Of a stretch of 64,000 nucleotides of DNA, positions 2,261 to 44,311 are shown in pieces. The translations under genes were made by a program, and so were the position numbers. Source of the stretch: Arcobacter sp. F2176 (GTDB lineage: Bacteria; Campylobacterota; Campylobacteria; Campylobacterales; Arcobacteraceae); the NCBI RefSeq assembly GCF_004116465.1, contig NZ_PDJV01000002.1, positions 1-64,000 of the forward strand. The letters run 5' to 3'. The stretch's first letter is position 1; each line of letters begins with the position of its first letter. The notes beneath the pieces are model-generated. The model was not told the DNA's origin. It saw only the letters and a list, made by a program, of their open reading frames with translations, and made no database searches.

Positions 2261-3706
2261 TTATTTCGTACAAAAGTAAATTTCACCTGCTGAAGGGGTA
2301 ATTCTCATAAGTTCTATATCATCTTGAGTTAAAAAATCTTTTGGATATATAGTTTTTACTTTAAACCCTGATCCCTCTAATCTATCTTTATAATCTGTGC
2401 CATAATTTCTAATATGATCTGCTTGCCCGAAAATTTTTGTTCTTTGAATTGGATCAACAATAGAAAAATCTTCAAATGTTGGTTTGTCATTATAGACTAT
2501 AGGGACATTTAAAATAGCCCAGCCACTTTTTTTTAATACTCTATTTAATTCTTTCATAGCTTTTCTATCATCAACTACATGTTCGAGAACATGACTACAG
2601 TATATTGCATCAAAACTATCGTCATCAAATCTTATGTTTGTTATATCCATCTTAATCATGGCACTTTTATCATGTAAGTCTACTGATATATAATTATTTT
2701 TGAGTAACTTTTGAAATATTTTTTGAAATATTTTTTCTGGTGCGACATGAAGCATTTTTATATTTGGATTACTTGAAATATTAGTTTGCTTAATTAAATA
2801 TAACCAAACCAATCTATCCTTTTCAACTGATCTACATGTGGGACACATTGCATCTTCTCTCATGGCTACGCCATAAGGGCTAAACTTGTGTGTACTAGTA
2901 TTACAAATTGGACAATATCGTTTTGTTTTCATTCTTCCATTTTTATTTAAAAAATCAAATAGGTTATATTTATTAAACACTTGATTTATTTGTTTATTAT
3001 TACCATTTATTTCATCAATATTTAATAAACTCAAGCCATTTTCTTGTGTATTCTCAATATATTTTAAATCCATGTATTTTTTATTTTTTTGCGATATTAT
3101 TTTAGATTTAATACCATTTCTTAAGGTCATAGCTTTAAACCATATATCATCTCCATGTGGGGCTAACGTCATGAAAATATTTTTATTTGTTATCTCTTTA
3201 TCAAAACAGTCAGGAGGATATAGAATACCACCTGCGCCTGTGGGAAATATTTCAAACCCTTCTTTAAATACTTCAGAACAATGTTCCCATTGATTATATG
3301 AACGTACATTGTTATCCTTATCAAATCTTATTCTATGACCTCGCGCACAATGAACTACCATAGGTTCTTTTTTATACGCGTCCACTAATTTTTCAATAAT
3401 ATCCTTCTCATAAATAATATCATCATCAAAAGTTATAATTAAATCATTTGGATATTTCTCAAGTGTTGGTATTAGTTTTTTATAAGATTTTATGTCTTCA
3501 CAAAAATTGAGTTCTAAACCTTTATTTTGTAATTTTTTCAAACTCTCAGGAATAGATTTTTCTTGAAACTCATCTTCTGCAAGCCAAAGGATAACTTTAT
3601 TCGCTTTAAATGTTTGATTTAAAATAGTTTCAATTGCAATATGTACAGTATTTATTCTTGTCCCATAAGTTGTTAGTGATGCAATTATTCTATTTTTTGA
3701 AGTCAT
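2261..3706 (-). CDS. glycosyltransferase / zinc-ribbon / SAM methyltransferase fusion
   Basis: I chose the ATG at 3706 (MTSKNRIIASLTTYGTRIN): it overlaps the upstream stop as ATGA, whereas the longer frame upstream lies wholly inside the preceding gene. The 481-residue product joins two enzymes. The first 230 residues look like a GT-A glycosyltransferase (IIASLTTYGTRI; acidic metal site DLIITFDDDIIY). After a linker come paired Cys (CPICNTS, CPTCRS; around residues 295-330), then a class I methyltransferase with the HVLEHVVDDRKAMKELNRVL signature. The family knowledge suggests sugar transfer plus methylation of the same glycan, but the substrate is not readable. The N-terminal 40 bases are nearly repeated at the start of the 4481-5005 gene. 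Confidence 0.82.
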   Translation of the reverse strand: MTSKNRIIASLTTYGTRINTVHIAIETILNQTFKANKVILWLAEDEFQEKSIPESLKKLQNKGLELNFCEDIKSYKKLIPTLEKYPNDLIITFDDDIIYEKDIIEKLVDAYKKEPMVVHCARGHRIRFDKDNNVRSYNQWEHCSEVFKEGFEIFPTGAGGILYPPDCFDKEITNKNIFMTLAPHGDDIWFKAMTLRNGIKSKIISQKNKKYMDLKYIENTQENGLSLLNIDEINGNNKQINQVFNKYNLFDFLNKNGRMKTKRYCPICNTSTHKFSPYGVAMREDAMCPTCRSVEKDRLVWLYLIKQTNISSNPNIKMLHVAPEKIFQKIFQKLLKNNYISVDLHDKSAMIKMDITNIRFDDDSFDAIYCSHVLEHVVDDRKAMKELNRVLKKSGWAILNVPIVYNDKPTFEDFSIVDPIQRTKIFGQADHIRNYGTDYKDRLEGSGFKVKTIYPKDFLTQDDIELMRITPSAGEIYFCTK

Positions 3707-4404
3707 TTTTCTTTTTTCTTTGCAATTACAAAAAAACTTTGTGCCTCTAAAGACCAACCTCTATGCATATTATCAAGTTTAGGGGCAAGTTTTTGATTTA
3801 GCCACCAAATTGGCATTAATATACCTTTAATAACTTTTTTTCTTAGTTTTGAACCTTTTATTGCTCTTTGAGTAAAATAATTTATTTTTAATAGTATAGT
3901 TGTAAAAAAACCTGAGCTTGGTTGAATATGAATATCTAAAAATCCCGCATTATTCAAAAGATACCTTAGCCCATAAGGCGTATATCTAAAGTAATCATAT
4001 GGGTGTTCATGTATCCACCATTGAAATGGTATATGTAAAATTAAAGTTCCATCATTTTTTAAAAGTCTATGACATTCATTGAGAAAAACTTGTGGTTCAC
4101 AAAGATGTTCTAATACATTTAGAGAAACAATTGTATCTGCATAAGCATCTTCTAAATCAATCCTTTTATTTAGGTCTGAAACAATATCAGCTTTGTTATT
4201 ATGAATAGTGTTTGACCAATCTACGCCTATATATTCATCAACATATTGTCTAAAAAATTCTTCAAAAGGTTTGTCTGCACATCCTAAATCTAGCATTACA
4301 CCTTTATAAAAAGGTATATATTCAATCAAATACTTATCTGCTTGGTCATATAGTAGCCAATTATATGCTTTTCTATTTGTATGATTTTTAGATGGATTTA
4401 TCAT
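3703..4404 (-). CDS. class I SAM-dependent methyltransferase
   Basis: The 233-residue protein has the SAM-binding motif MLDLGCADKPFEEFF (about residues 37-51), an acidic ribose-binding strand (EYIGVDWSN) and the post-I motif VLEHLCEPQVFLNECHRLLK. The C-terminal HEHPYDYFRYTPYGLRYLL is common in methyltransferases of surface-polysaccharide loci. It overlaps genes on both sides by ATGA junctions, so it is probably translated as part of one long message. It is likely a sugar O- or C-methyltransferase acting on a nucleotide sugar or glycan; the exact position methylated cannot be told. Confidence 0.85.
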   Translation of the reverse strand: MINPSKNHTNRKAYNWLLYDQADKYLIEYIPFYKGVMLDLGCADKPFEEFFRQYVDEYIGVDWSNTIHNNKADIVSDLNKRIDLEDAYADTIVSLNVLEHLCEPQVFLNECHRLLKNDGTLILHIPFQWWIHEHPYDYFRYTPYGLRYLLNNAGFLDIHIQPSSGFFTTILLKINYFTQRAIKGSKLRKKVIKGILMPIWWLNQKLAPKLDNMHRGWSLEAQSFFVIAKKKEK

Positions 4405-4481
4405 TGCTTTTTCTCAAAAATGTAAAAATCTGCAAAAGTTGTTTCTGTAGGATTCTTAGAATCATATTTATTTTTGTTCAT
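4401..4481 (-). CDS. 26-residue coupled ORF, probable methyltransferase tail remnant
   Basis: The ATG at 4481 shares a base with the TAA of the upstream gene (TAATG), and its TGA overlaps the next ATG (ATGA). The peptide contains NPTETTFADFYIFEKK, which resembles the C-terminus of a class I methyltransferase rather than a start. I infer a gene remnant kept because it hands ribosomes from one gene to the next. No independent function is claimed. Confidence 0.35.
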   Translation of the reverse strand: MNKNKYDSKNPTETTFADFYIFEKKQ

Positions 4482-5005
4482 TAAGATAACCTCTTATTTA
4501 TTAAATTGTAGTCTCTAATTAATTCATCTATTATTTCTTCTTCTCTTCCCAATACAGAAATAACAACATAATCAAACTCTAATTGCTTTATTTTTTCTAA
4601 TCCAAAAATATCTAATTTATATTGATTCCTTAATACTTTATAGATTTTATCAATTATTGCTATGACTTGATTATTGAAATTATTGTAAATATTAATCCCA
4701 ATATTACCATAACCATATAGAATAAATTTTTTATTTTCAATTAATTGATTTAAATTTATATTTAGTTTATTTAATAGCTTAGTAAGTAATATCTGATTGT
4801 TCGGATTATTAGAAATAAAATTATTAGTTACTCTTGTATTATATATATTTTTGTGATTTTTTTCAAACTTAGTTTGAGCAAACATGGATTCAATATGTGA
4901 TAAAATTATATTCTTTTGAGATACCCCATTTCCAAAATTTATTCTTGTATCATAAGTTGTTAGAGATGCAATTATTTGTTTACACTTTAAAAGATTATTT
5001 ATCAT
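4481..5005 (-). CDS. mosaic short protein: GT stub plus Rossmann-like C-module
   Basis: The 174-residue product begins with KQIIASLTTYDTRIN, almost the same as the start of the 2261-3706 glycosyltransferase, and then loses that similarity after about 25 residues. Its second half (KKFILYGYGNIGINIYNN, then FDYVVISVLGREEEIIDEL) matches the C-terminal module of the 618-2237 glycosyltransferase. The catalytic middle of a glycosyltransferase is absent. I infer an internal deletion or recombination product that kept an open frame. It could be inactive, or the C-module could work alone as a nucleotide-binding or partner domain. Confidence 0.6.
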   Translation of the reverse strand: MINNLLKCKQIIASLTTYDTRINFGNGVSQKNIILSHIESMFAQTKFEKNHKNIYNTRVTNNFISNNPNNQILLTKLLNKLNINLNQLIENKKFILYGYGNIGINIYNNFNNQVIAIIDKIYKVLRNQYKLDIFGLEKIKQLEFDYVVISVLGREEEIIDELIRDYNLINKRLS

Positions 5006-38514: not shown

Positions 38515-39663
38515 TTGAAAACAAAAGAACTTTCTATAATTATATACAACATAGTAGTTGTATTATCTGTAATGTATGCAACTCAGCCACTTCAACCCTT
38601 ACTTGCAAAAGAGTTTGAAGTATCAATTGTAAAATCTTCACAATTTACAGCAGTTATCATGTTATTTTTAGCAATTGCACCTATTATTTATGGATATATA
38701 TTAGAACGAGTAAATGCAAAAAGGGTTTTATTGACAGCTTCACTTATTTTAGCCGTTACAAATACTTTTTTATCTTTTTCAACATCATACGAGATGTTTT
38801 TAACTATAAGAACAATAGAAGCCATAGTAATACCAGCGATTTTAACTTCATCTATGAGTATCTTAGCAAACATAGATAAAGTAAATGTGAAACTAAATAT
38901 GTCAATATATGTGGCTTCAACAGTTTTTGGTGGTTTAGTAGGAAGGGTATTTTCAGGATATATTGCCACATATTTTTCTTGGCAAATGGTTTTCTTATCT
39001 CTATCTTTTGCTTCAATTATTGGATTGTTTTTAGTTACAAGATTAAACTATGATGCCCAAGCTCACTTAACAAAAGCTACAATAAAAGATATCACACATA
39101 TATTAAAAGATAAAAGATTTTTTGTAATATATCTTTTGATGTTTTCTATATTTTTTGTATTTGCAGGAGTTTTAAATATCTTGCCATTTAGACTTAAAGA
39201 GTTAGATCCAAGTACAAGTGAGAGCCAGATAGGACTTTTATATTTAGGATATGGGGTTGGAATAGTTGTCTCACTTTTTATTCATAAGATTATAAAATTC
39301 TTTGATAAAGAGATGAAAACTATACTTTTTGGAATAATAATCTTTTTAATCTCAACAGCACTATATATAGTAGAAAATCCACTTATTATATTTCTAAATG
39401 TATTTTTATTTTGTTTAGGAATGTTTACAGTTCATACGGTTAGTACTAGAATGGCAAACTCCCTAAAAGAGTCACAAAAATCATTAACCTCAGGTATGTA
39501 CCTAAGTTTCTATTACATAGGTGGAACAGTTGGTTCAATTATCCCTCCAATGTTTTATTCTCTTTATGGTTGGGATAAAACTATATACTTATGTATGTTT
39601 TTACTTTTTGTAATCTTTATTTTTGTATATTCAAATAGAAAAATATTTAAGGCGTATAATTGA
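38515..39663 (+). CDS. MFS transporter (YnfM-like)
   Basis: I chose the TTG at 38515 (MKTKELSIIIYNIVVVLSVM) with GGA six bases upstream; an earlier GTG lies inside the terminator hairpin of the previous gene. About 382 residues with 12 membrane segments. The first is followed by YATQPLQPLLAKEFEVSIVK, and the motif A-like loop YILERVNAKRVLL lies between segments 2 and 3. This matches the drug-efflux-like YnfM/YbcL group. Substrate unknown. Its stop overlaps the next start (TTGA). Confidence 0.85.
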   Translation: MKTKELSIIIYNIVVVLSVMYATQPLQPLLAKEFEVSIVKSSQFTAVIMLFLAIAPIIYGYILERVNAKRVLLTASLILAVTNTFLSFSTSYEMFLTIRTIEAIVIPAILTSSMSILANIDKVNVKLNMSIYVASTVFGGLVGRVFSGYIATYFSWQMVFLSLSFASIIGLFLVTRLNYDAQAHLTKATIKDITHILKDKRFFVIYLLMFSIFFVFAGVLNILPFRLKELDPSTSESQIGLLYLGYGVGIVVSLFIHKIIKFFDKEMKTILFGIIIFLISTALYIVENPLIIFLNVFLFCLGMFTVHTVSTRMANSLKESQKSLTSGMYLSFYYIGGTVGSIIPPMFYSLYGWDKTIYLCMFLLFVIFIFVYSNRKIFKAYN

Positions 39664-40016
39664 TTTTAGGAAAATGTCCTTATTGTAAAGATGGACAAAT
39701 AGAAGTAAGAAAAAAAGAGGTTAATGGCAAAAAAATAGAGCTTTATGCTTGTTCTAATGCCAAATGGTACAGCGAAGATGGAGAACTCTTCGAACTCACC
39801 CCTGAGGCAACTTGTGATTTTAAGATATGGCAAAATTCTTTGAGGAAGTATGGGAAGTATTTGAAACAAAGAGAAGTGAGAGCTTTACTTTTAGGAGAAG
39901 ATGTTGTTGTTACTTTTCATTCTAAGAAGTATAAAGAGAAGGTTACTTATCAGAAGTATATAATGCTAAGTCAAGAGTATGGAGTGTCAGTCATCTGGGA
40001 CATCGACATAGAATAA
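39660..40016 (+). CDS. topoisomerase-type zinc-ribbon protein
   Basis: The 118-residue protein starts with TTG overlapping the MFS stop. It has CPYCKDGQIEVRKKEVNGKK, YACSNAKW and CDFKIWQ, which look like one four-Cys ribbon of the kind at the C-terminus of DNA topoisomerases. This is followed by KYGKYLKQREVRALLLGEDV, similar to the Toprim_Crpt repeat. No catalytic domain is present. It may be a stand-alone nucleic-acid-binding protein. Confidence 0.55.
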   Translation: MILGKCPYCKDGQIEVRKKEVNGKKIELYACSNAKWYSEDGELFELTPEATCDFKIWQNSLRKYGKYLKQREVRALLLGEDVVVTFHSKKYKEKVTYQKYIMLSQEYGVSVIWDIDIE

Positions 40017-40138
40017 AAAAGCCATCTTTTTACAAATTTCTGCGTCAGAACAATAAATTTACTCAGTCACATACTGCTTGTATGTTCCTTCCCAAATTGA
40101 TTCCTCTTCCTTGAACTTACTAAAAATATGGCTTTTTT
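40015..40138 (+). repeat. nested hairpin element, possible dispersed repeat and terminator
   Basis: AAAAAAGCCAT (40015-40025) and ATGGCTTTTTT (40128-40138) are a perfect 11-base inverted pair enclosing 102 bases. Inside, AATAAATTT (40052-40060) pairs with AAATTGATT (40094-40102, one mismatch), and ACATAC-TGCTT-GTATGT (40069-40085) forms the tip. The outer stem ends in T residues and could stop transcription of the zinc-ribbon gene. The rest has no coding frame. Confidence 0.6.
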
Positions 40139-40222
40139 GTATTTTATTTAAAGTGTCGAAATGCTAATTTTTAAATAATATTCTTGTAACATACTTATAA
40201 ATATTTTATTTAAAGAGTTATT

Positions 40223-41860
40223 ATGGAATTGGTTTATTTGTGGGTTGAGGATTATAAGAATATAAAGAAGCAGGGGTTTAATTTTTCTCCTAGGTTTAAG
40301 TGTGAGTTAAAAGATGAGTATGATGAGAAAGGAAAATTAAAAGATAATTGCGAATTAATTATTGATAAAAATGAAGATTATGTGAGTATTTTCCCTGAGA
40401 ACATAAATATTACTGCTATTGTTGGGGAGAATGGGAGTGGGAAGAGTAATCTTATTAAATGTATTGATTTTGTGTTTACTAGTTGTCAATATAACATTTA
40501 TTTTTCGAATAATATTCTTTATTCTGATTTTCCATTAAAACAAATTATTAATAAAACAAATTATGAATTAAAAGAAAAAGAAGAACATAATGAAATAATA
40601 TTTTTGAACAGAAATTTTTTTATGGAAGTTCCTTTAAATGGTGCATTATCTCCTTTATTTTTAGATAATAAAAATTTATATTCAAAATATTTTAAATTAG
40701 ACAAAAAAAACTCTACAATAAATATAAATAATTTTCATAAAGAGATTCTAAGAACTTTGTTATTTAGTAAAAGTAATATTAAAAATACATTCTTTAATCC
40801 CAAAAAAATAAGAATTAAATTTAATCAATTACATAAAGATTTCATTGAATCTAAAAAAATAAGAGAAATACGAATTTATAATAATTTATATAATTATAAA
40901 GAAATATATAAAATTTATTTAAAATCTAACGATTTGATTTCATCTCAAAATAAGGGGATTGATGTTGAAAGCGAAATGATTGATTTTTTAAACGATAAAG
41001 ATAAAATATTAAACTTTAATATTTATGATGAATCCTTTATATTAAAAGGAGATGATGATATTTTTAAGTTTTTGGAGAAGTTTATCGTAAATAATCCTAG
41101 CTTGCTTTTTTCAAAAGATTTTATATTTCGAGAATTAAAAAGAATTGAATTCTTAAAAGATAATAATTTTGAAATATTTCTTTATTTAAATAAAATAGGA
41201 TTTTTAGAGTATGACTTTATAGATGAACAAAAAACTTTTTCGTCTTTAAGTAGTGGAGAAAAATCTTTTTTCAGTGAATTCTTATTTTTAAATAAAGAGA
41301 TATTTTATAATCGAGAAAATAAAACTTTTTTATTAATTTTTGATGAACCTGAAACTACTTTACATCCACAATGGCAAAAAAAATATATAAATGAGGTTGT
41401 AACTTTTTTAAAGAATTATACAACAAAAGATATTCAATTCCATGTACTCATCACATCTCATTCTCCATTTATTTTGTCAGATTTACCAAAAAAGAATATA
41501 ATATTTTTAGAAAAAGGAAAACAAGTTTATCCGTTTGAAGATAATCAACAAACTTTTGGAGCAAATATTCATACTTTACTTTCTCATGGATTTTTTATGA
41601 AAGATGGACTTATGGGTGAATTTGCAAAAGATAAAATTGATATAGCAATCAAATATTTAAATCAAACAAAATTAAGTGATGATGAGATTAGTTATTGTGA
41701 AAACATTATCTCAATTATTGGTGAGCCAATAATTAAAAGAGAATTGCAAAGAAAATTAGATAGTAAAAGATTATCAAAATTAGACAAAATTGATGAAATT
41801 GAAGAACAAATGAGATTGCTTGAACATCGTTTAGAAATGATAAGGAAAAATCAGAAATGA
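40223..41860 (+). CDS. ptuA: Septu-like PtuA ATPase
   Basis: The 545-residue AAA-type ATPase has Walker A GENGSGKS (residues 68-75), an ABC-like signature FSSLSSGEKSFFSEFLFL, Walker B with catalytic Glu in LLIFDEPETTLHPQW (about residue 370) and an H-loop ITSHSPFILSDLP. The 250 residues between are low in similarity to anything I recognise. There is no TOPRIM domain, which argues against an OLD nuclease. With the HNH gene that overlaps it by ATGA, it fits the Septu anti-phage pair (PtuA ATPase, PtuB HNH nuclease). The very AT-rich codon use and position next to repeats are consistent with transfer. The pairing is seen; the function is inferred. Confidence 0.78.
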   Translation: MELVYLWVEDYKNIKKQGFNFSPRFKCELKDEYDEKGKLKDNCELIIDKNEDYVSIFPENINITAIVGENGSGKSNLIKCIDFVFTSCQYNIYFSNNILYSDFPLKQIINKTNYELKEKEEHNEIIFLNRNFFMEVPLNGALSPLFLDNKNLYSKYFKLDKKNSTININNFHKEILRTLLFSKSNIKNTFFNPKKIRIKFNQLHKDFIESKKIREIRIYNNLYNYKEIYKIYLKSNDLISSQNKGIDVESEMIDFLNDKDKILNFNIYDESFILKGDDDIFKFLEKFIVNNPSLLFSKDFIFRELKRIEFLKDNNFEIFLYLNKIGFLEYDFIDEQKTFSSLSSGEKSFFSEFLFLNKEIFYNRENKTFLLIFDEPETTLHPQWQKKYINEVVTFLKNYTTKDIQFHVLITSHSPFILSDLPKKNIIFLEKGKQVYPFEDNQQTFGANIHTLLSHGFFMKDGLMGEFAKDKIDIAIKYLNQTKLSDDEISYCENIISIIGEPIIKRELQRKLDSKRLSKLDKIDEIEEQMRLLEHRLEMIRKNQK

Positions 41861-42762
41861 TTAAAATTGATACTTCTAAAATAGATAGTTCGAAATATTA
41901 TAAATATATAGAAAATTATATAAATCAAAAAGATACTAAGTATTCTCTAGAAAATATTAATTACGATTTATTAATGATTTTTGATAAAGATTTAGAACAA
42001 ATAGTTACGGCAAAACCTAATGAAGTAAGAGAATTGATAAAAATAGCTCCTAAAGATTTTACAAAAGATATTACTCAATTAAAAGATTTATATGAAGTTT
42101 TTAGAAATAAGTGGGCGGTTGAATTTATAGAAGATTTAAATATAAAAGTTTGCCCTTTTTGCAATAGAGAATATATATTTAAATTTGAGGATAAAATAAA
42201 AGGAGAACCACGAATAATTGCTTCTTTAGATCATTATTATGATAAAAATACTTATCCTTTTTTATCTGTAAGTATCTTTAATTTCATACCTTGTTGTCAT
42301 ATTTGTAATAGTAAATTTAAACATACAAAGAATTTTTACAATAGAAAACATCTTCACCCATATGAAGATAGTTTTAACGGAAAAGCAAAATTTACGAAAT
42401 TTTTTAATAATGTAAATTATGAAAATAAAAAATTTGATTTGTTATCCAAAGAGAGAATATCATTAACTCTAAAACCTTTAGATACTAATGATATTGCAAC
42501 ACAAAATACAATAAATACATTTAGATTAGAAACTTTATACCAAGAGCACAAAGATATAGTTCTAGAACTCATCCAAAAAGCACAAGTTTATAATGAAAGT
42601 TATATTGATGAACTTTTTCAAAAATATGAGGGAACTTTATTTAAAAATCGTGAGGATGTTTTACGGCATATAACTGGTGGATATATAGAAGATAAAGATA
42701 TAAACAAACGACCTCTTTCAAAGTTGATAAAAGATATTAGTGAAGAGTTGGATTTAATATAA
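41857..42762 (+). CDS. ptuB: Septu-like PtuB HNH endonuclease
   Basis: The 301-residue protein has an HNH/zinc site in order: CPFCNREY (about residue 98), LDHYYDKNTYPFLSVSIFNF with the catalytic Asp-His (about 123) and CCHICNSKFK (about 146). This is the layout of PtuB and related HNH nucleases that cut DNA once licensed by an ATPase partner. It starts inside the end of ptuA, so the two are co-translated. The N-terminal 90 residues are helical and unassigned. The gene-free inverted element begins right after its stop. Confidence 0.78.
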   Translation: MIKIDTSKIDSSKYYKYIENYINQKDTKYSLENINYDLLMIFDKDLEQIVTAKPNEVRELIKIAPKDFTKDITQLKDLYEVFRNKWAVEFIEDLNIKVCPFCNREYIFKFEDKIKGEPRIIASLDHYYDKNTYPFLSVSIFNFIPCCHICNSKFKHTKNFYNRKHLHPYEDSFNGKAKFTKFFNNVNYENKKFDLLSKERISLTLKPLDTNDIATQNTINTFRLETLYQEHKDIVLELIQKAQVYNESYIDELFQKYEGTLFKNREDVLRHITGGYIEDKDINKRPLSKLIKDISEELDLI

Positions 42763-42766
42763 TATT

Positions 42767-43316
42767 TTCTCTTGAAGAGGTAAACCTCTTCGCTTCTCTT
42801 ACTTTGTGTGGACAAAGTAAGCAAAACCACCAACGGTTTCAAAGCCCTTTAGGTTCCCTCATTTATTATTTATCTTTTCTAAGTTACAAAACTCATAAAT
42901 AAATGTGCATTTAGCACATTTATTTACTCAAACAGTTGTAACTCTTTTCCGAAAAGAGAAATAAACATTCGGCTTTTGCAAATGTTGGAATAAAAGGTGG
43001 GATAAGGACATTTGCATTTTTGATTTGTTTAGACTTCTAACTTCTCTTTTCTAAATTTACAAATGATAGTTTGAACTGTAGGGATTTTTTCTGCCTTTGA
43101 TGAAGCTGGAAGTTAGATGTTTATTTTCGGTAAAGCCCGAAACTGTTTGAGCGTAAAGAAGAGTGCTAAATGCACTCTTTAGTGAGTTTTGCAGGGCAGA
43201 AAATAAATATATAGCTGAAAGGGAGCTTTGCCTTCATCAATTCGGCAGTCTTTTTTGCTTACTTTTTCGAGACCAAAAAGTAAGAGAAGCGAAGACTGCT
43301 AAGTCTTCAAGAGAGC
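42767..43316. repeat. 550-bp inverted pair of a hairpin-rich element
   Basis: No gene is seen from 42763 to 43519. The left arm (42767-42967) and the reverse complement of the right arm (43117-43316) align along most of their 200 bases. In each arm, hairpins occupy the same places but with different, still paired stems. First: GAAGAGG/CCTCTTC on the left and GAAGACT/AGTCTTC on the right. Second: CTTACTTTG/CAAAGTAAG and CTTACTTTTT/AAAAAGTAAG. Third: GTGC-ATTTA-GCAC with a long A/T stem on the left and GAGTGC-TAAAT-GCACTC on the right. A central 150 bases contains one more pair (GCAAATGT 42978-42985, ACATTTGC 43008-43015). It could be a non-autonomous mobile element or two structured RNAs. Confidence 0.75.
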
Positions 43317-43405
43317 AAAAATTTATTTTTGATATATAAATTTATTCCAAATTTACTTAAAATTAAGTTTGCATAAATCCCACAAATTCAGGCTTAAACA
43401 ACAAA

Positions 43406-43432
43406 TTAGCACTTTTATTTATTAATTGCTAA
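43406..43432 (+). promoter_or_regulatory. CIRCE-like HrcA operator, upstream copy
   Basis: TTAGCACTT-N9-AATTGCTAA matches the CIRCE consensus (TTAGCACTC-N9-GAGTGCTAA) with three changes and the exact spacing. It lies just before the -35 box of the hrcA promoter. Confidence 0.75.
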
Positions 43433-43439
43433 AAAATAC

Positions 43440-43469
43440 TTGACAAATAAACACTCAATTGAGTATAAT
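43440..43469 (+). promoter_or_regulatory. sigma-70 promoter of hrcA-grpE-dnaK
   Basis: TTGACA (43440-43445) and TATAAT (43464-43469) are both perfect and 18 bases apart. The promoter is bracketed by two HrcA operators. Confidence 0.88.
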
Positions 43470-43472
43470 TAT

Positions 43473-43499
43473 TTAGCAGTTTAAGATTATGAGTGCTAA
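43473..43499 (+). promoter_or_regulatory. CIRCE HrcA operator, downstream copy
   Basis: TTAGCAGTT-N9-GAGTGCTAA has a perfect right half and two changes in the left. It covers the expected transcription start, so bound HrcA would block initiation. Confidence 0.85.
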
Positions 43500-43519
43500 A
43501 TAAACAAAATTGGTTGAAA

Positions 43520-44311
43520 ATGATTGACAAAAAAGAGTTTTTACTACAATCTATTATCAAAGCATATATTGAGCATCTAGAACCTATAGGTTCTTCACAG
43601 CTTAAAAGTATGTATGATATCACATATTCACCAGCAACTATTAGGGGATACTTTAAAAAGTTAGGTGATGAGGGCTATTTGGCTCAAGAACATGTAAGTA
43701 GTGGAAGAACTCCTACAACTGAAGCATTACGACAATATTGGAGTTCAAAGTTAAACTTTAAACTCAATTTCGTAGATGAAAAAGCAGTTGATTATTATTC
43801 TTCTCAAGTTGGATTGACAGCATTTGTCTTAGAACAAACTAGCGATGTTTTAAAAAATATACTTAATGTAGAAAATCGATATATGATTTTAGAGTTTTCA
43901 ACTTTTAATGTAACAGTAAAGTTTACAGATGCTCTTTATAGATTTTTAAGTGATATGATAGGTTTAGACTTGATTCATATTGTAAATATTTCTAAGCAAG
44001 TTGGCGCTTTCGAAGTATATGAATCAGTAAACCAATTTTTAAAAAATAGAGACTTTAGAATTTTTAATACTAAAGAATTTTTTTCATTGGTATTAAGATT
44101 TAATTATGATGAAGATACTATTGAAAAGTTTCTAAAAGGAACTATTTTTGAGAGCATTGAAAATGCTATATATTTTGACACAATAGTCCCAGAAGGGTAC
44201 ATCGGTATTTGTCATGATTGTATAATTAACAGCAAAGAATCTAAACTTTTGGTGGTTGGAGAACTATCAAAAGATTATGAATTCTTTTATAATAAAATAA
44301 GTATGAATTAG
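43520..44311 (+). CDS. hrcA: heat-inducible transcription repressor HrcA
   Basis: I chose the ATG at 43520 ([20 protein letters not shown]); an in-frame GTG at 43493 lies inside the CIRCE operator. About 263 residues, as in other Campylobacterota. The winged helix is [20 protein letters not shown], then [20 protein letters not shown] and SGRTPT, the classic HrcA signature. It represses its own operon through CIRCE and is kept active by GroEL in known cases. grpE follows after ten bases. Confidence 0.93.

What the first reader, a model, noticed from the sequence alone, without database searches (positions are those of the whole stretch)
42767..43316. Diverged inverted element with paired changes in hairpin stems
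A gene-free stretch consists of two 200-base arms in opposite orientation around a 150-base centre. The arms have drifted apart, but hairpins at matching places keep their pairing through two-sided changes: GAAGAGG/CCTCTTC against GAAGACT/AGTCTTC, CTTACTTTG/CAAAGTAAG against CTTACTTTTT/AAAAAGTAAG, and a GTGC/GCAC stem against GAGTGC/GCACTC. Unpaired linkers such as CGCTTCT and CAAACAGTT are conserved instead. This is what selection for structure looks like, in RNA or in single-stranded DNA. The arms could be two structured RNAs, or the ends of a non-autonomous mobile element. It abuts a defence gene pair.
Basis: partly seen in the sequence, partly recalled or inferred. Interest (0 to 1): 0.75.

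Follow-up and report, generated by a model that had tools for sequence, protein, structure and literature searches.

The report
Folded repeat element beside defence genes
This gene-free stretch is one of a family of about 550-base DNA repeats, present at about 18 places in this bacterium and also in related Arcobacter-type bacteria, whose two mirror-image halves keep the same fold while their letters change and which sit where genes, often anti-virus genes, are swapped in and out.

Summary
Window 42767-43316 is one copy of a repeat present at about 18 loci in its own genome and in ten or so other genomes, nearly all Arcobacteraceae-type. A complete copy is two ~230-nt arms in inverted orientation (most pairs 500-607 bp). 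Each arm holds two terminal hairpins and a long multi-helix domain. Twenty-six of 44 tested base pairs show two-sided compensatory change, far above shuffled and slid controls. G·U, not A·C, departures dominate on the outward-reading strand, so one strand is selected to fold. No Rfam family matches. Arms of copies at the same site are replaced wholesale while flanks stay mostly 90-97% identical. Copies lie just 3' of genes and repeatedly at edges of variable, defence-rich loci: upstream of hrcA, three sister genomes carry three different defence cargos ending 4-6 bp from the element. No target duplications, no simple empty sites among 12 tested, no consistent RAYT or integron integrase. Best reading: a REPIN/BIME-like family with unusually large structured arms that spreads by an unidentified route, exchanges modules by recombination, and serves as shared homology for swapping accessory genes. 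The spreading enzyme and RNA-versus-ssDNA remain open.

The parts
42767..43316 (.). Whole element: two inverted folded arms around a short spacer
   Evidence: One of ~18 loci in the genome; sharp ends shared by full copies
42767..42996 (-). Left arm; the folded (outward-reading) strand is the minus strand
   Evidence: Covariance model match 251 bits; G.U over A.C bias on the outward strand; fold -71.2 kcal/mol
43082..43315 (+). Right arm, of a different sequence type; the folded (outward-reading) strand is the plus strand
   Evidence: Covariance model match 215 bits; outward strand folds at -72.9 against -57.8 kcal/mol for its complement
42774..42791 (.). HP1 of left arm, GAAGAGG-TAAA-CCTCTTC
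   Evidence: Sequence; compensatory columns 263, 265, 266
43291..43308 (.). HP1 of right arm, GAAGACT-GCTA-AGTCTTC
   Evidence: Sequence; same helix
42798..42821 (.). HP2 of left arm, CTTACTTTG...CAAAGTAAG
   Evidence: Pattern match; helices 7 and 8
43258..43284 (.). HP2 of right arm, CTTACTTTTT...AAAAAGTAAG
   Evidence: Pattern match
42896..42926 (.). Apical hairpin P3e of left arm, flanked by the conserved internal loop AAACTC (42889-42894) / CTCAAACAGT (42927-42936)
   Evidence: Perfect inverted repeat I8; P3e chimera test z about -20
43158..43180 (.). Apical hairpin P3e of right arm (GAGTGC/GCACTC)
   Evidence: Sequence; all four P3e pairs covary
42997..43081 (.). Spacer between the arms
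   Evidence: Interval between the two covariance-model matches; differs between copies
40223..41860 (+). Neighbouring cargo gene 1: AAA ATPase, PADLOC candidate PDC-M62A (Septu PtuA-like); not part of the element
   Evidence: PADLOC E 1.5e-108, Pfam AAA_21
41857..42762 (+). Neighbouring cargo gene 2: PDC-M62B (HNH-type, PtuB-like); stop codon 4 bp before the element
   Evidence: PADLOC E 9e-74; distance
43493..44311 (+). hrcA, the conserved gene on the other side
   Evidence: Found next to the element in G000, G001 and G002

Best explanation
It is a member of a dispersed, non-coding, BIME/REPIN-like family of Arcobacteraceae: two inverted ~230-nt arms, each a module that folds on one strand. 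Shown: multicopy, sharp ends, covarying fold, strand bias, arm replacement at fixed sites, placement just after stop codons and at edges of variable gene sets. Inferred: (1) copies spread non-autonomously through an unidentified enzyme that recognises the folded outward strand, as single-stranded DNA or as RNA; (2) once dispersed, copies recombine with each other and with incoming DNA, so that they act as portable homology through which defence and other accessory genes are exchanged next to conserved genes.
For: About 18 loci in the genome and many copies in relatives. Covariation. Strand bias G.U over A.C. At orthologous sites one arm is replaced while the other arm and the flanks stay ~90-100% identical; HP1, HP2 and P3 types reassort. 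Outer ends within 25 bp of a stop codon in 29 of 67 cases against 1 of 41 for gene starts. Three different cargos at the hrcA site and at the TctC site in three sister genomes. An AraC gene followed by an element in G000 is, in G020, followed by one element shared with the M62B gene. A SIR2-HerA island lies between two copies in G016.
Against: No enzyme identified; no empty site shows a clean insertion. Many copies follow ordinary genes, so exclusive ties to defence are not shown and enrichment was not formally tested. Arm exchange could be ordinary gene conversion between repeats with no role in cargo exchange; cargo breakpoints were not mapped inside arms.
Confidence: 0.55

Rival explanations
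1. Each arm encodes a structured non-coding RNA transcribed outward from the centre; the element is a divergent pair of RNA genes, and dispersal is secondary.
For: Strand-specific G.U pattern, conserved unpaired motifs such as CTCAAACAGT, large multi-helix fold, fold kept in solo arms (scores of 155-182 bits).
Against: The inner side of solo arms is variable DNA, so no common promoter is evident; no Rfam match; no transcript evidence held. Inverted pairing and many copies per genome are unusual for an RNA gene.
Confidence: 0.2
2. It is an ordinary MITE: a deleted DNA transposon mobilised by a DDE transposase through its terminal inverted repeats.
For: Inverted arms, sharp ends (YTCTCTTGAA), AT-rich surroundings, narrow length distribution.
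Against: No direct repeat of 4-12 bp at the ends (27 copies; shorter ones not tested); no simple empty site; compensatory change in internal stems is not expected of passive terminal repeats.
Confidence: 0.09
3. It is a REPIN proper, mobilised by a RAYT (Y1) transposase.
For: Doublet of inverted folded units; RAYT-like genes in five of twelve element-bearing genomes; in G016 one lies 112 bp from a solo arm.
Against: None in G000, G010, G014, G018, G027, G033 or G030. The RAYT-like gene of G020 sits among different palindromes (GGGGACAGAATACC). Arms are far larger than REPs.
Confidence: 0.07
4. It is a recombination site of an integron-like cassette system (a giant attC).
For: Cargo gene followed within a few bases by a folded element, with a different cargo at the same place in sister genomes.
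Against: Intact integron integrase is absent from element-rich G001 and G002 and present in genomes without elements (G024, G031, G032). Copies also follow housekeeping genes, in both orientations.
Confidence: 0.04

Closest known systems
REPIN / BIME (REP doublets; PMC3116915, PMC2817692, PMC3733652)
   Same: Intergenic, dispersed, two inverted folded units, mosaic, solo units also present, predicted to fold in ssDNA or RNA, used as an IS insertion target
   Different: Arms ~230 nt with about six helices instead of 20-40 bp REPs; about 18 loci here; no RAYT in many carriers; long conserved internal-loop motifs; association with swapped cargo
MITEs of prokaryotes (reviewed in PMC10969869)
   Same: Short, non-coding, inverted ends, multicopy
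   Different: No target duplication found; internal compensatory structure; arm-by-arm exchange
IS110 / IS1111 non-coding ends (bridge RNA or seekRNA; PMC11208160, PMC11187229)
   Same: Structured non-coding sequence with internal loops in a mobile context; one copy contains an IS110
   Different: The IS110 interrupts an arm, so it is a visitor and not the parent; loops are conserved across copies; flanks share no extra words with the element
Integron attC cassettes
   Same: Folded site directly after an accessory gene, cargo variable between strains
   Different: Size, inverted doublet, both orientations, housekeeping neighbours, no matching integrase distribution

Membership tests
REPIN/BIME | Two units in inverted orientation that can fold as hairpins | tested here: met
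   44 of 69 merged places are +/- pairs
REPIN/BIME | Unit is a short 20-40 bp palindrome with a GTAG or CGTC tag | tested here: not met
   Unit is ~230 nt with several helices; ends are YTCTCTTGAA
REPIN/BIME | Cognate RAYT in the genome, flanked by the same repeat | tested here: not met
   No Y1 gene in 7 of 12 element-bearing genomes; RAYT-like gene of G020 has other repeats beside it; one arm beside a RAYT-like gene in G016
MITE | Terminal inverted repeats with sharp ends | tested here: met
MITE | Target-site duplication | tested here: not met
   4-12 bp, 27 copies, equal to shuffled partners; shorter lengths not tested
MITE | Empty sites in relatives | tested here: not met
   None among 12 flank joins in three sister genomes
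MITE | Parent transposon with the same ends | not tested
   Only Y1, IntI and an interrupting IS110 were looked at
Integron attC | Integron integrase in carriers | tested here: not met
Structured non-coding RNA family | Significant covariation beyond controls | tested here: met
   not corrected for phylogeny
Structured non-coding RNA family | Match to a known family | tested here: not met
   Rfam scan
Structured non-coding RNA family | Transcript of the outward strand | not testable with these tools
   No expression data held
IS110 non-autonomous element | IS110 recombinase as parent, loops matching ends or target | tested here: not met
   IS110 in L064 interrupts an arm; no excess of shared words between flank and element

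The most novel reading that the evidence does not exclude
The arms are a new kind of strand-specific structured nucleic acid (RNA or single-stranded DNA) that, with an unidentified protein, actively drives exchange of accessory and defence genes at element-marked sockets: a cassette-swapping system unrelated to integrons, RAYTs or IS elements.
Probability: 0.15. Interest if true: 0.92.

Novelty: new variant of a known kind. Interest (0 to 1): 0.62.

Why it matters
Why defence genes cluster and turn over at fixed chromosomal places is only partly explained by phages, integrons and transposons. Here a non-coding, strongly structure-selected repeat marks such places in a group of related bacteria, replaces its own arms between sister strains, and borders different defence systems at the same site. 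That gives a concrete, searchable marker for cargo swapping and a testable question: what enzyme reads the fold. The family is absent from Rfam, and a few literature searches of open-access papers found no description of it.

Tried and rejected
Plasmid and phage collections and viral contigs: no match. Rfam: nothing above chance. DNA-uptake-sequence idea: all HP2 palindromes in the genome lie in known element loci. Integron attC: integrase distribution does not fit. RAYT. Target duplications. Empty sites: 12 flank joins in three sister genomes, none simple. Near-identical copies in G030 looked like recent mobility, but they lie beside 5S rRNA, so gene conversion among rRNA operons is the likelier cause. 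Guide-RNA idea: no excess of flank-matching words (8.98 against 8.75 +/- 0.15). MAFFT plus RNAalifold on 86 mixed arms gave a poor consensus; the 28-arm outward alignment worked better. Formal enrichment of defence genes: PADLOC on 75 immediate and 74 second neighbours gave 240 against 103 matched families, but one protein can match many families, so this is not a test.

Full report
WHAT IS THERE. The window lies in an Arcobacteraceae-type genome (G000, 3.27 Mb, 98 contigs). The 550-bp stretch has no convincing gene and recurs at about 18 loci in G000 (46 HSPs). Among 60 searched genomes BLAST found it in 13, its own included: plentiful in the same genus (G001, G002) and in G010, G011, G016 and G020, sparse or weak in others, absent from most of the family. 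Exact-word hits in named genomes are the MAGs Arcobacter sp. BM504 and Epsilonproteobacteria bacterium UBA4036. A covariance model of the arm, run on 200 genomes of the order, brings out one more genus clearly and two weak single hits in other families. No copies in plasmids, phages or viral contigs.

ANATOMY. A profile of the arm finds 117 arms in the held loci; 44 of 69 merged places are +/- inverted pairs, most of them 500-607 bp long, and 23 are solo arms. Ends are sharp: YTCTCTTGAA at both outer ends. Reading an arm from its inner to its outer end: a long domain closed by P3a (CCAAC/GTTGG, CTGCC/GGCAG or CCAGAC/GTCTGG in different copies), then P3b and P3c, an internal loop with nearly fixed letters (CTCAAACAGT opposite AAACTC), an apical hairpin P3e, then HP2, a GAAGCG linker, HP1 and the end. 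A piece of about 60-75 nt with only HP2 and HP1 also occurs alone (L018, L040, and a remnant in G010 at the hrcA site).

SELECTION FOR STRUCTURE. On 28 arms aligned in the outward orientation, for 44 pairs in nine helices: 94.2% of cells pair (shuffled 81.1 +/- 0.6), 26 pairs have two-sided changes (16.8 +/- 1.9), covariation score 0.39 (0.177 +/- 0.009); sliding partners by 1-3 columns gives 40-54% paired. With little reliance on column alignment, true 5'/3' partners pair better than chimeras between copies for all six helix segments tested (z -8 to -22). Caveats: copies are related and mosaic, so counts are not independent events, and the structure was derived from the same sequences.

WHICH STRAND. 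In the inward orientation A.C mismatches outnumber G.T 98:45 over six helix segments; leaving out the P3a+b segment (G.T 36, A.C 9), where the ungapped method probably mis-registers because the 5' strand is itself palindromic, it is 89:9. That exclusion was made after seeing the result. On the 28-arm outward alignment, all helices included, G.U:A.C is 68:23. The outward strand of the window's right arm folds at -72.9 against -57.8 kcal/mol for its complement; the left arm differs less (-71.2 against -66.8). So the strand running from centre to end of each arm is probably the one selected to fold. This favours RNA or strand-specific ssDNA over a dsDNA cruciform, and cannot tell the first two apart.

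EXCHANGE OF ARMS. At orthologous sites one arm can be kept and the other replaced while flanks stay similar: at the hrcA site in G000/G001 the left flank is 90-97% and the left arm 93-100% identical (90% in one window), the inner right half 37-73%, and the last ~30 bp and much of the right flank are again 73-97%; the leuA and Rha sites behave likewise. HP1, HP2 and P3 types reassort among copies. This is evidence of conversion or double crossover between copies.

WHERE IT SITS. Outer ends lie a median 37 bp from gene 3' ends (29 of 67 within 25 bp) and 131 bp from 5' ends (1 of 41 within 25 bp). In flank comparisons many copies have one conserved and one different flank. hrcA site: a conserved 118-aa gene and ~200 bp, then cargo, then the element 4-6 bp after the cargo stop, then hrcA. 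The cargo is a PDC-M62 (Septu-like) pair in G000; in G001 a KilA-N-like gene, ATPase fragments, MNT-HEPN-like genes and a divergent M62B; in G002 a KAP NTPase (PDC-S20) (KilA-N and MNT-HEPN are my reading of the sequences). TctC site: a solo arm, then a KAP NTPase, a CAP12/PCTIR-TIR protein or an OLD-like ATPase in G000, G001 and G002, then a shared 318-aa gene. In G020 the M62B end abuts an element whose other side is an AraC gene; in G000 that AraC gene has its own element 19 bp downstream, as if two element-bearing places had recombined. In G016 a SIR2-HerA pair with further genes lies between two copies. In G001 a copy stands where G000 has a 657-aa gene next to the valyl-tRNA-synthetase-like gene; G002 has a similar-sized gene there too. 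A DRT (UG36), an OLD/AriA-like ATPase, a type I specificity subunit and an AbiZ-like protein also lie next to copies. Other copies follow ordinary genes, so the association with defence is repeated but not exclusive, and its enrichment was not formally tested.

HOW IT SPREADS. Not shown. No target duplications of 4-12 bp, no simple empty sites in 12 joins, no RAYT in seven of twelve element-bearing genomes and different palindromes beside a RAYT-like gene of G020, although one solo arm does lie 112 bp from a RAYT-like gene in G016; no integron-integrase correlation. An IS110 has inserted into one arm (L064), as IS elements do into REPs (PMC1525189). The best-supported view is a REPIN/BIME-like family that exchanges modules by recombination and offers homology for swapping accessory genes; its original dispersal enzyme is unknown.

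MEMBERSHIP. It works like a REPIN (inverted folded doublet, dispersed, mosaic; PMC3116915) but fails the size and cognate-RAYT features; it fails the target-duplication and empty-site features of a MITE and the integrase feature of an integron cassette site. It is filed as a new variant of the broad kind 'dispersed palindromic intergenic elements', with the structure-selected ~230-nt arm as its distinguishing feature.

Noticed in passing
L064 3428-4685 (G010:C17): An IS110-family element (transposase 3679-4665) has inserted into an arm near the apical hairpin, splitting it.
   Followed up: partly
L017 4113-4387, L018 3293-3489, L041 3596-3786, L045 3669-3929, L054 2753-3013: A second repeat of up to ~260 bp lies directly beside several elements; in L045 a phage-type integrase gene lies ~350 bp from the element.
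   Followed up: partly
L158 9289-15028 (G016:C2): A 1629-aa and a 285-aa gene without PADLOC match lie with SIR2-HerA between two element copies: candidate defence genes.
   Followed up: no
L161 5398-9009 (G016:C1): An 810-aa and 389-aa gene pair without PADLOC match lies between two element copies.
   Followed up: no
L135-L141 (G030): Near-identical arm copies lie beside 5S rRNA genes, and three lie in a tandem array with a 559-bp period (L136).
   Followed up: partly
L153 4450-5700 (G020:C39): A RAYT-like gene is surrounded by its own short repeats (GGGGACAGAATACC); similar CTGGG..ATACCAATTAATT sequence lies beside the two elements of L038 in G001.
   Followed up: partly
G000:C24:35791-36705: The genome carries an intact integron integrase; its cassette array was not examined.
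   Followed up: no
G000 contigs C22, C29, C33, C38, C40, C18: Several contigs end within ~100-450 bp of an element; L022 and L023 are the two sides of one G001 copy (L043), so the repeats appear to break the assembly.
   Followed up: partly
window 39660-43493 and the same place in G001, G002, G010, G027: The gap between a conserved 118-aa gene and hrcA is a variable site holding different accessory genes in each genome.
   Followed up: yes
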